Below are positions 7,598 through 44,614 of a stretch of DNA of 64,000 bases, one piece after another. The translations under genes and the position numbers were made by a program. This DNA is from Halogranum amylolyticum (GTDB taxonomy: Archaea > Halobacteriota > Halobacteria > Halobacteriales > Haloferacaceae): positions 186,001 to 250,000 of the forward strand of contig NZ_FODV01000001.1 in the NCBI RefSeq assembly GCF_900110465.1, read 5' to 3'. The notes under the pieces are model-generated. The model worked only from the letters and a program-made list of their open reading frames with translations, was not told the DNA's origin and ran no database searches. Position 1 is the stretch's first letter; each line of letters begins with the position of its first letter.

Positions 7598-7607
7598 CTT
7601 TGTTATA
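7598..7607 (-). promoter_or_regulatory. TATAACAAAG promoter element of the glmS unit
   Basis: Exact TATAACAAAG on the minus strand, in GC-rich surroundings, 34 bases before the ATG at 7573. This is one of five exact copies in the window, all before carbohydrate-related genes. Confidence 0.65.
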
Positions 7608-7832
7608 AGGTGGCTGAACACTCCCGGTTTGGGGTTAGTCACTCGCTCACTCACGACACACGAGGGCGGACTCGACCGGTGTCGTCGTGGACGCCGTCCG
7701 TCGGTTCGACCGGACGAACAACGGTCACTTACCGGCGGTCGTCGCCGACTACCGCTCGATCGGACACTGCTCGCTGTCGACGAGTCGCCGACGGTCGCGG
7801 GCGAGGCGAGAACGTGCGGGACATGACATCCT

Positions 7833-7852
7833 CCTCGCCGTCAACGGCGAGG
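7833..7852 (-). repeat. IS right-end hairpin
   Basis: Perfect 8-base-pair stem CCTCGCCG/CGGCGAGG with loop TCAA, 24 bases beyond the tnpB stop. It lies where TnpB elements carry the right end and where the tnpB-overlapping guide (omega/sot) RNA would finish. Confidence 0.7.
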
Positions 7853-7875
7853 TTTCCTCACGCTGGGGGTATCGC

Positions 7876-9199
7876 TTACCGACCCACGGAGGCAACTTGC
7901 GGGTTTGTATGCTCCTCGTTGGGACGGAGAGAGCGTGGTGACTCCAACCAGTCGTGGTTGTCCCACTTGAGGCATACAGGCCGTGCCATCGACCGTGTTA
8001 CCGTCGTCTGCCGTTGACGAGACACGGAGTGTCTCGTTCGCCAATCAGAACTCAGAGAGTTCTGATGACGTCTCAGGAACGTCTCTGACGCCGTGAGGTC
8101 TGCGTGTCCCTCGAATCCACACGGGCACGTCAGCGTGTCCTGATGTCGAATTGTGTCCTCTGTCGACCCACAGTTGGGACACTCCTGACTCGTCCACGCC
8201 TCAGACCGAACCTCGACCGAGATGCCGTATTCCTCGGCAGTACACGCCAGCCTGTTCACGAATGCTCGGAACGCCCAGAAACTGTGTGTCTTCGCGTTCG
8301 TCTCCACCGACCAGTGTGTCTCGAGTACGTCCGTTAACGCCCCGACGTACACCGTGGAAACGCCATCGTCATACAGGCGTTCGATAAGGTCACGAGCGAG
8401 CGCGTCCTGTGCGTGATCGCGTCGCTTGGTACGTCGATCGTACAGACGTCGGATACGGTGACTACTGTCTCGTCCTTCTTCCAAGAGCGATTTCTCGTGT
8501 CGTCTCACGGAACCGCTCGAACAGGTCTCGTCCTTCGTACAGATACTGCTTGCCGGTCGTGGTTGTACAAGCGACGAGATTGTTCGCACCAATATCCAGA
8601 GCGGATTCTTCCGAATCCAGTGGTTGTGCCAATCGAGAATTATCGATGGTGACTGGCTGAAAGGCCCTGAATGTTTGTGCTTGCTCGTCGTAGAACAACT
8701 CCAACCGACCCTGCTTCTCGTATTCCTTCCAGTTTGGGTCGCCACGGACTTCGAGTCGGAGGCGTTCGCAGTATCCCAAGCCGTATTCGTCTTTCAGGTC
8801 TTGGCCGACGTGAATTTCGAGTCGGGAGTATTCGCCCCATTGAACAGAATATGAGGTGTTTCGGATGTACGTGCGGAGGTCGCGTCCTTCGCGTTCGTTG
8901 CCCCAGTATCCTGGCTTGCCGTTGGCTTCACCTTTCTTCTTGAGTGCAAAGAACGAGTTCCACGCTTCACGATTCTTGCGCTCGATTTGCTGAACCGTCG
9001 AAGCGCCGAGAACACCGCCGTAACGACCGCGATACTCACTGATGTCCCAGACGGAGACGTCTGGGTTGGCATAATTCTCACGGCGCTCGTAGTTGATCTC
9101 GTTCCAGAGAGCAGCAGAAGCGTCCAACATGCGTCGAAGTAACTCCTCGTCCTCGTCGGACTGTGGAATCACGTCAAACGTGTTGGCTCGCTTCATCAA
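7876..9199 (-). pseudogene. tnpB: IS1341-type transposase/RNA-guided nuclease TnpB, frameshifted
   Basis: The first reading frame runs from [40 protein letters not shown] (9199) to [19 protein letters not shown] and stops at 8462. The rest continues in another frame from about 8490: [34 protein letters not shown] onward to VASVGR at 7876. The normal bridge between REIA and LLEEG appears shortened, consistent with a small out-of-frame deletion. Otherwise the nuclease looks complete. RuvC-I aspartate is in [11 protein letters not shown], the RuvC-II region contains [16 protein letters not shown], the zinc knuckle has CPNCGS...CPCG, and RuvC-III is GHADLTAS. So this is a recent pseudogene of about 420 codons. 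Confidence 0.88.
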
Positions 9200-9297
9200 C
9201 TACTGGTTGTAATTAAAATGACAAGAAAGTTTGGGGGGAGAGGATACCCCAGAGTAAGTGTCGAGCGTAGTTTGTGTTGTAGAGTGTCGGATTCATG

Positions 9298-9315
9298 CCC
9301 GCCCTAAAGGGCGGG
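9298..9315 (-). repeat. IS left-end hairpin
   Basis: Perfect 8-base-pair stem CCCGCCCT/AGGGCGGG with AA loop, about 100 bases upstream of the tnpB start. CATGCCCGCCCTAAAGGGCGGGAC is followed by TCTCTCCTTGAG, the kind of imperfectly palindromic left end found in haloarchaeal IS1341-type elements. Confidence 0.65.
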
Positions 9316-43218: not shown

Positions 43219-43305
43219 GAGAAGAGAGACTCACCCGGCCACACTAAACCATGTGGAGACGAGTCGTCCGCCGGTAGCGGGGGAGACGTGGCGGAGACGG
43301 CGTGA

Positions 43306-44481
43306 TCAGCCCTCGTTGTACCAGACGTCGACGTGGTGGTCGGGGCCGTAGGACTTGCCGACGACGTCCGGACGGCCGTCGCCCGTCAGGTCGGCGACCT
43401 TCGCCTCGTGCGTCGCGACGCCCGTCTCGACGACGTGTTCGCGGAACTCCCCGTCGCCGAGGTTCTCGAAGACGAGCTGCTGCGGCGAGTCGTTCGTGCC
43501 GAGCCCCATCTCGGCGACGTAGACGTCGAGGCGACCGCTCCCCGTGAAGTCGGCCACCTGGAGCGTGTGCGGACAGAACAGGTCGTCGCGGAGCACCGTC
43601 GGCGTCCAGTCGGGGCCGTCGACCCACGCGAGACGACCGGGGTGGGAGCCGTACTTCGGGGAGTCGCCCTCCGAGTAGACGATCTCTAACTCGCCGTCGT
43701 CGTCGAGATCGCCCACGGCGACGCGGACGTCGTCCCAGTCGGTGAGGACGTCCTCCCGGTGCCACGTCCCGTCGTCGTTCCGGTGATAGATGTGCGTCCC
43801 CGCGACGATCTCAGTGGAGCCGTCGCCGTCGACGTCGACGATCTGGACCCCCTCGACGCGGACGTCGTCGTCGACGATGTGACAGTGCGAGGCGGGCCAC
43901 GGCGACCGATACGGGTTCTCGGGGACGTCGTAGTAGAAGATGGTGCGACTCTCCTGTGAGAGCCCAACCACTTCGACGTCGCCGTCGTCGTCGACGTCGG
44001 CGACGACCACGTCGTGGTACTTCTCGAAGTCGGTGGTGATGGTGTGTTTCGTCCAGAGTTCGCGTGGGTCGTCCGGTTGCTCGAACCAGTAGACGGCGTC
44101 GTGGTGGATCCCCTGCCCGGCGACGACGTCCAGACGGCCGTCGCCGTCGACGTCGCCGAGCGCGCCGCCGACGTCGAGATGGGGAGCGATAGCCATCTTG
44201 TGACGCTTCCAGCCGGGGTTCTCGTACCAGAACAGATGCATCTCCTCGAACCCCAGTCTGGTTCGGAGCGCGTCGAACGTCGGCAGTCGACTCTCCTTGG
44301 CCTTCAGTACGTACTGCTTGCCGGGGTACGGTTTGCCCGCACCGCCGACGATGACGTCGTCGCGGCCGTTGCCGGTGAGGTCGGTGGCGAGACAGAAGCC
44401 GAGACGGGCGCACGGGGGGGCGGGGTCGACGGTCTCGTGGCGGAACGTCAGTGACGACTCGGTTCGGTGTTGGGACTCCAT
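43306..44481 (-). CDS. FG-GAP/VCBS-repeat beta-propeller protein
   Basis: A 391-residue protein of repeated Asp-rich calcium-binding loops: DLTGNGRDDVIVGG, DVDGDGRLDVVAGQG, DVDDDGDVEVVGL, DVDGDGSTEIVAGT, DLDDDGELEIVYSEG, DFTGSGRLDVYVAEMG, DLTGDGRPDVVGKS. Seven blades suggest a seven-bladed propeller, probably binding carbohydrate or acting as a scaffold. No signal peptide is visible. The ATG at 44481 is selected over 44508 because TATTACAATG lies exactly 34 bases before it, and the upstream ATG would fall inside that box. Confidence 0.82.
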   Translation of the reverse strand: MESQHRTESSLTFRHETVDPAPPCARLGFCLATDLTGNGRDDVIVGGAGKPYPGKQYVLKAKESRLPTFDALRTRLGFEEMHLFWYENPGWKRHKMAIAPHLDVGGALGDVDGDGRLDVVAGQGIHHDAVYWFEQPDDPRELWTKHTITTDFEKYHDVVVADVDDDGDVEVVGLSQESRTIFYYDVPENPYRSPWPASHCHIVDDDVRVEGVQIVDVDGDGSTEIVAGTHIYHRNDDGTWHREDVLTDWDDVRVAVGDLDDDGELEIVYSEGDSPKYGSHPGRLAWVDGPDWTPTVLRDDLFCPHTLQVADFTGSGRLDVYVAEMGLGTNDSPQQLVFENLGDGEFREHVVETGVATHEAKVADLTGDGRPDVVGKSYGPDHHVDVWYNEG

Positions 44482-44505
44482 CGACGAGAGAACGACCGCT
44501 CGATG

Positions 44506-44515
44506 CATTGTAATA
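44506..44515 (-). promoter_or_regulatory. TATTACAATG promoter element
   Basis: Eight of ten match to the recurrent motif on the minus strand, 34 bases before the ATG at 44481 of the VCBS-repeat gene. Confidence 0.65.
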
Positions 44516-44604
44516 GAGCGGTTAATTTCGGCCTATCCGACGGGACGGCGACGTGGCGTCCGGCCCGTTCGTGAGTCACCGTGACACGGTACTGCCAGGC
44601 GCTC

Positions 44605-44614
44605 TATAACAAAG
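44605..44614 (+). promoter_or_regulatory. TATAACAAAG promoter element of the wecB-wecC operon
   Basis: Exact copy, 35 bases before a GTG at 44640 that is in frame with wecB, 48 before the 17-codon ORF, and 98 before the preferred wecB ATG. Confidence 0.7.

What the first reader, a model, noticed from the sequence alone, without database searches (positions are those of the whole stretch)
7598..44614. A recurrent promoter element, TATAACAAAG, marks the surface-glycan transcription units
Seen directly: five exact copies of TATAACAAAG occur at 7607-7598(-), 11795-11804(+), 30454-30445(-), 30594-30603(+) and 44605-44614(+). Close variants are at 15741-15732(-) TGTAACAATA, 22381 CATAACAAAG, 24763 TATAACGAAA, 27381-27372(-) TATAACAATG, 27529 TATAACCAAT, 36140 CATAACGATA, 44515-44506(-) TATTACAATG, and possibly 50383 CATAACTTTT. 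All point at glmS, glycosyltransferases, beta-helix or phosphatase-superfamily genes, the Asn-synthase homologue, the flippase, wecB, or the VCBS protein. In a genome this GC-rich an exact 10-mer with eight A/T bases should be well under once per 64 kb. At seven sites the first base is 34 or 35 bases before an ATG or GTG. The TATA part fits a haloarchaeal core promoter; the conserved CAAAG 3' part does not and suggests a dedicated TFB/TBP or regulator.
Basis: partly seen in the sequence, partly recalled or inferred. Interest (0 to 1): 0.78.

Follow-up and report, generated by a model that had tools for sequence, protein, structure and literature searches.

The report
Haloarchaeal surface-sugar promoter signature
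A short DNA signature sits at the start of most gene sets for making cell-surface sugars in this salt-loving archaeon, is nearly absent from the rest of its genome, and recurs in front of the same kinds of genes across many haloarchaea, so it is probably the shared switch of surface-sugar production, although the protein that reads it is not yet known.

Summary
Five exact TATAACAAAG copies lie at the stated places (0.00 expected), and the whole 5.19 Mb genome has only seven. The element is larger than reported: A-N7-YATAAC-a-A-W-G. Of 19 genome matches to that consensus, 10 are in this locus; the 9 others are a chance-level number. A matrix trained only on Haloarcula-type loci finds 12 window sites, all already identified. 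Non-glycan genes in the window lack it. It precedes exopolysaccharide/surface-glycan genes in many haloarchaeal genera, including a Haloferax mediterranei plasmid cluster.

Base composition of 129 sites puts a -10 WW at +23/+24 and a purine start at +34/+35. Canonical BRE (CGAAA) and TATA (TTWT) are both replaced.

Best explanation: a haloarchaea-wide promoter class for surface-glycan genes, read by a dedicated factor. The best candidate is the winged-helix DUF7344 protein, often beside glmS; a PadR protein or a special TFB are rivals. Factor identity, direction of control and 5' ends are untested.

The parts
7598..7615 (-). exact site, 5' of a short leaderless-type ORF and glmS (A-8 included)
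11041..11058 (-). site TATAACCAAG 96 bases before a DUF7344 gene
11787..11804 (+). exact site before the DolP-type GT2 gene 11961-12998
15732..15749 (-). site TGTAACAATA before the nucleotidyltransferase gene 14955-15705
22168..22185 (-). weaker site GATAACTATG before gene 21269-22009
22373..22390 (+). site CATAACAAAG before the glycoside-hydrolase-like gene 22461-23705
24755..24772 (+). site TATAACGAAA before the beta-helix gene 24797-26344
27372..27389 (-). site TATAACAATG before gene 26360-27340
27521..27538 (+). site TATAACCAAT before the Asn-synthase homologue 27601-29355
30445..30462 (-). exact site before the GT2 gene 29455-30420
30586..30603 (+). exact site before the DUF1616 gene 30693-31703
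36132..36149 (+). site CATAACGATA before the flippase gene 36174-37705
44506..44523 (-). site TATTACAATG before the VCBS/FG-GAP gene 43306-44481
44597..44614 (+). exact site before wecB 44640-45866
50195..50212 (-). weak site GATTACTAAG, 173 bases before gene 48910-50031
50375..50392 (+). marginal site CATAACTTTT before the metallophosphatase/dockerin gene
   Evidence: score 5.0
9411..9962 (-). DUF7344 winged-helix protein, candidate reader of the element
   Evidence: binding not tested
10424..10954 (-). second DUF7344 protein, with a motif copy upstream
11245..11526 (+). PadR-like 93-aa protein, second candidate
55577..56551 (+). TFB paralogue lacking the zinc-ribbon cysteines; no motif upstream; judged not the general reader

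Best explanation
The sites are the core of a dedicated, conserved haloarchaeal promoter class, A-N7-YATAAC-a-A-W-G, that co-regulates exopolysaccharide/surface-glycan genes. Transcription most likely begins 34-35 bases downstream of the first T, often at a start codon (leaderless). The element occupies the BRE/TATA region and replaces the usual CGAAA and TTWT boxes. Shown by sequence: the element, its strand and distance, its near-exclusive location in glycan loci in this genome, and its conservation. Inferred: the start site, that the genes are co-regulated, and that a dedicated DNA-binding factor reads the element, most likely as an activator that recruits TFB/TBP to an otherwise poor core promoter. 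The best candidate is the DUF7344 winged-helix protein beside glmS (about 0.35 for DUF7344, 0.15 for PadR, 0.2 for a special TFB/TBP, the rest another protein).
For: Exact copies far above chance and concentrated here. A matrix from Haloarcula-type loci alone recovers 12 window sites. Non-glycan genes of the same window lack it. Conserved base by base at fixed distances across families: A(-8) 89% and 97%, WW at +23/+24, purine at +34/+35, ATG peak at 34/35. Same element in glycan loci of many genera. Canonical register in the same genome for comparison (PMC4983044). DUF7344 near exact motif sites in 22 of 69 versus 3 of 68 control sites, and next to glmS in nine sampled genomes outside the genus; winged-helix model.
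Against: No mapped 5' ends and no binding or expression data; the register rests on base composition. Several loci were chosen because they hold an exact copy, which inflates enrichment there. Some glycan genes in the window (18968, 33022, GFO/IDH) have no site. No single regulator family was found in every motif-bearing locus: the fetched Haloferax mediterranei stretch shows other winged-helix proteins instead. DUF7344 is a large family (up to 36 copies per genome), so co-location is weak proof of function.
Confidence: 0.78

Rival explanations
1. An alternative general transcription factor (a TFB or TBP paralogue) reads the element directly as its own core promoter, somewhat as an alternative sigma factor would in bacteria.
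For: Both BRE and TATA consensus are replaced at once. TFB genes lie beside the locus in the window and in G001, and near DUF7344 and/or glmS in G012, G020, G041, G056 and G057; in G056 the TFB gene itself has a motif 110 bases upstream.
Against: The window TFB has an ortholog at this place only in G001, has lost its zinc-ribbon cysteines and has no motif upstream. No TFB gene was seen in many other motif-bearing loci.
Confidence: 0.2
2. The element is the operator of a repressor (for instance the PadR-like protein) that overlaps the core promoter; the genes are off until it leaves.
For: A motif copy lies at the PadR gene's own start in several genera, as in self-regulation; motif hits in PadR loci 23 versus 1 control at score over 9. 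In Haloferacaceae loci the sites partly resemble the dyad GTTA-N9-TAAC.
Against: A repressor site would normally leave good BRE/TATA boxes beneath; here both are replaced. The dyad is not kept in Haloarcula-type loci. PadR is not in the G056 cluster.
Confidence: 0.15
3. The copies are a by-product of common descent or of AT-rich mobile glycan islands, not a functional element.
For: The core is AT-rich, and several such loci are on plasmids.
Against: Flanks diverge between sites while single bases at fixed distances are kept. Non-glycan genes in the window lack it. A matrix from another group of genomes recovers the sites. The window is 66.6% GC, not AT-rich.
Confidence: 0.03

Closest known systems
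Canonical haloarchaeal promoter (BRE CGAAA, TATA box TTWT, -10 WW; PMC4983044)
   Same: Same -10 WW position, same inferred leaderless start distance.
   Different: TATAAC instead of the BRE consensus, AAWG instead of TTWT, and an extra A eight bases upstream of the core.
CsmR motif of Haloferax volcanii, TATCA-N4-TGATA (PMC13286277)
   Same: A regulon-specific element near the core promoter of cell-surface (archaellum, cell-shape) genes in haloarchaea.
   Different: CsmR's element is a semi-palindrome upstream of BRE and TATA elements; this one is not that sequence and overlaps the BRE/TATA register itself.
EarA-type activation of the archaellum promoter in Methanococcus maripaludis (PMC5512572)
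   Same: Proposed working likeness: a winged-helix activator thought to help recruit TFB to a poor BRE for a surface structure.
   Different: EarA sites are four 6-bp boxes upstream of a BRE and TATA box; no binding protein is known here.
Haloferax mediterranei exopolysaccharide gene cluster (deleted in published strains, PMC9769981)
   Same: A plasmid glycan cluster of that species shares wecB, UDP-sugar dehydrogenase, Asn-synthase homologue, DUF1616, DUF354 and flippase genes with the window and carries the same element, 9 hits versus 1 control.
   Different: That this plasmid cluster is the one deleted in the published strains was not checked. No promoter motif turned up in the papers searched.

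Membership tests
Canonical haloarchaeal core promoter | WW at -11/-10 before a purine start | tested here: met
   WW 71-77% AT at +23, 52-71% at +24; purine at +34/+35
Canonical haloarchaeal core promoter | TTWT TATA box at -29 to -26 | tested here: not met
   AAWG occupies that register in the aligned sites
Canonical haloarchaeal core promoter | CGAAA-like BRE just upstream of the TATA box | tested here: not met
   TATAAC occupies that register; no conserved bases between A(-8) and the core
Canonical haloarchaeal core promoter | mapped transcription start 26-28 bases after the TATA centre | not testable with these tools
   no 5'-end data; start inferred from composition only
CsmR-regulated promoter | TATCA-N4-TGATA motif | tested here: not met
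   the aligned sites show A-N7-YATAACaAWG; consensus of CsmR from PMC13286277
EarA/CsmR-type upstream activator site | site lies upstream of a separate BRE/TATA | tested here: not met
   the element covers the BRE/TATA register
Palindromic operator of a homodimeric regulator (PadR-like) | inverted-repeat half-sites kept across species | tested here: not met
   GTTA-N9-TAAC holds partly in Haloferacaceae-type loci, not in Haloarcula-type loci
Surface-glycan regulon | element precedes glycan genes and not other genes | tested here: met
   window table, genome count, other genera
Surface-glycan regulon | a factor that binds the element and alters expression | not testable with these tools
   only co-location of DUF7344 and PadR genes was measured

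The most novel reading that the evidence does not exclude
Haloarchaea have a dedicated promoter class for the cell surface that does not use the standard BRE/TATA boxes, read either by a membrane-tethered winged-helix factor (DUF7344) that reports the state of the envelope, or by a specialised TFB/TBP acting like an alternative sigma factor, and kept across families of the group.
Probability: 0.4. Interest if true: 0.8.

Novelty: new variant of a known kind. Interest (0 to 1): 0.62.

Why it matters
Little is known of how haloarchaea control exopolysaccharide and surface glycans. A shared promoter signature gives an annotation tool: it flags surface-glycan genes and their likely start sites in haloarchaeal genomes. 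It also makes the regulator question directly testable in Haloferax mediterranei, which is genetically tractable. A promoter class with neither standard BRE nor TATA consensus would also show how archaeal promoters can be specialised by function.

Tried and rejected
Window TFB as the cognate factor: rejected as general reader, since orthology at this place is confined to G001 and its promoter lacks the motif.

A perfect dyad (GTTA-N9-TAAC): holds in part in Haloferacaceae-type loci, not in Haloarcula-type loci.

1-mismatch counts genome-wide: no excess over control, so loose variants alone prove nothing.

PadR as universal regulator: absent from the G056 cluster and not found in the fetched Haloferax mediterranei locus.

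Solved structures by sequence for DUF7344: none; a fold search gave only generic winged-helix matches, none with E-value 0.001 or below.

Literature: ten searches found no description of the motif, of DUF7344, or of a regulator of haloarchaeal exopolysaccharide clusters; the library holds only open-licence papers.

Full report
WHAT WAS CHECKED. With two mismatches allowed there are 15 matches against 2.6 expected. The window lies in a 5.19 Mb haloarchaeal draft genome. Its family contains a genome with a contig of the same length as a Halobium salinum contig, so it is most likely Haloferacaceae. The genome has only seven exact copies, five of them in this 64 kb.

THE ELEMENT IS BIPARTITE. An expectation-maximisation search on regions upstream of cluster genes gave a longer motif with an extra A/T-rich triplet ending in A eight bases before the first T. 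In sites chosen only by their core ([CTG]ATAACAA[AT]), so not biased by the flank, A(-8) is 89% in Haloferacaceae-type loci (82 sites) and 97% in Haloarcula-type loci (59 sites), against 29% in 7 background sites. The consensus A-N7-YATAACVAWR occurs 19 times in the genome: ten in this locus, nine elsewhere. The reversed pattern occurs 10 times in the whole genome, so the copies elsewhere are at chance level. One of the nine precedes a reading frame beginning MCGIVS, which looks like a glutamine-amidotransferase start.

SPECIFICITY IN THE WINDOW. Best upstream scores are 8.6-17.6 for glmS, two GT2 genes, the nucleotidyltransferase, the GH-like gene, one beta-helix gene, 26360, Asn-synthase-like, DUF1616, GT4, flippase, VCBS, wecB and one DUF7344 gene. 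They are 1.4 or less for all genes classed as other, including the glmU-like gene, Na/Ca exchanger, TrkH, TrkA, a second UDP-sugar dehydrogenase, TFB, the ABC genes and the P-type ATPase (family assignments). A beta-helix gene (18968), 33022 and GFO/IDH have no site. That matrix includes sites from the window itself. The clean test is a matrix built only from 59 Haloarcula-type sites: it finds 12 window sites, all already identified here, 18.8 hits/100 kb, against 2.2/100 kb in 0.88 Mb of the rest of the genome (19 hits; reversed matrix 13).

CONSERVATION. The same element at the same distance precedes orthologous genes in two congeners and glycan genes in other genera and families. Counts against the reversed matrix at score over 10: 55 vs 12 in 36 haloarchaeal loci, mostly from named organisms; 57 vs 5 in 20 further loci, mostly of family f17; 63 vs 6 in 20 loci chosen near motif, DUF7344, PadR or TFB genes. 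Loci were partly chosen because they hold an exact copy, so those counts overstate genome-wide enrichment; those were chosen by a glycosyltransferase only. The reversed 10-mer, searched in the same 60 genomes, clusters less (10 of 112 versus 25 of 89 sites with a neighbour within 20 kb). A plasmid glycan cluster of Haloferax mediterranei ATCC 33500, found through its Asn-synthase homologue, has 9 hits versus 1; Haloferax gibbonsii, Halobaculum and Haloarcula sinaiiensis loci behave likewise. That species' exopolysaccharide cluster has been deleted in published strains (PMC9769981); identity of the two clusters was not checked.

REGISTER. In 451 ordinary ATG-start genes of the same genome the canonical pattern is seen: A at -34/-33, TTWT at -29 to -26, WW at -11/-10 relative to ATG, in line with CGAAA, TTWT and WW described for haloarchaea (PMC4983044). 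In the motif sites WW lies at T1+23/+24, a purine at +34/+35, and ATG peaks at 34/35. Aligning the two frames puts TATAAC over the BRE and AAWG over the TATA box. This is inference from composition; no 5' ends are mapped.

WHO READS IT. Three candidates were examined. (a) TFB at 55577-56551: a paralogue without its zinc-ribbon cysteines, orthologous at this place only in G001. Other TFBs lie near DUF7344 and/or glmS in five further genomes, so a TFB role is not excluded. (b) PadR-like 93-aa protein at 11245-11526: syntenic in several genera, with a motif copy at its own start in some. (c) DUF7344 proteins at 9411-9962 and 10424-10954: a predicted winged helix followed by two long C-terminal helices whose sequence is hydrophobic, so probably membrane-anchored. 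DUF7344 lies next to glmS in nine sampled genomes outside the window's genus (G003, G012, G020, G023, G026, G029, G048, G056, G059). With AT-rich genomes left out, exact motif sites lie within 20 kb of a listed DUF7344 gene in 22 of 69 cases versus 3 of 68 controls; for PadR 16 of 69 versus 3 of 68. DUF7344 is preferred because the arrangement DUF7344-motif-glmS recurs across families, but this is association only. The absence of standard BRE/TATA under the element argues for an activator or a special TFB/TBP rather than a simple repressor.

VERDICT. No description of this element was found in the open-licence papers searched.

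Noticed in passing
window 7530-7573 (-); L060 8531 (-); L064 9181 (+): A short reading frame starts exactly 34 bases after the motif (MTVAIRPSSAVGGRQ; MTVGTRGLPVVGGQE; MTVRLFHRSTDVVGGGRR in three congeners). 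In the window and G001 its stop overlaps the next ATG; it looks like a conserved leaderless leader peptide.
   Followed up: partly
window 7434-7530 (-): Where the congeners have a nucleotidyltransferase gene after that leader, the window has only a 31-codon frame (MTVTAETIVLGDEGVRVGDGVVVTDGSEVVY) before glmS, perhaps a deletion remnant.
   Followed up: partly
window 55577-56551 (+): TFB paralogue that has lost the cysteines of its zinc ribbon; 80% ortholog only in G001.
   Followed up: partly
G041:C3, G057:C1, G012:C5, G020:C12, G056:C1 (L274, L275, L276, L277, L070): A TFB gene lies within about 1-3.5 kb of a DUF7344 gene in five genomes, in three of them next to glmS.
   Followed up: partly
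window 37793 (+, before GT2c); L269 33958 (-); L272 1849 (+); L276 12130 (-): A related form, YATACTAAT (one base shorter in the A run), sits 34-39 bases before a gene start; it may be a second version of the element.
   Followed up: no
L130, L131, L147, L164, L179 (Haladaptatus, Halomicrococcus, Halobium, Halosimplex): In these genera the core often reads YATAATAAAG (T for C at the sixth base) at similar spacing.
   Followed up: no
L287 (G056:C1:533001-553000) 10061 and 10247 (+): Two motif copies in tandem before an 82-aa gene of unknown function, outside the main glycan cluster.
   Followed up: no
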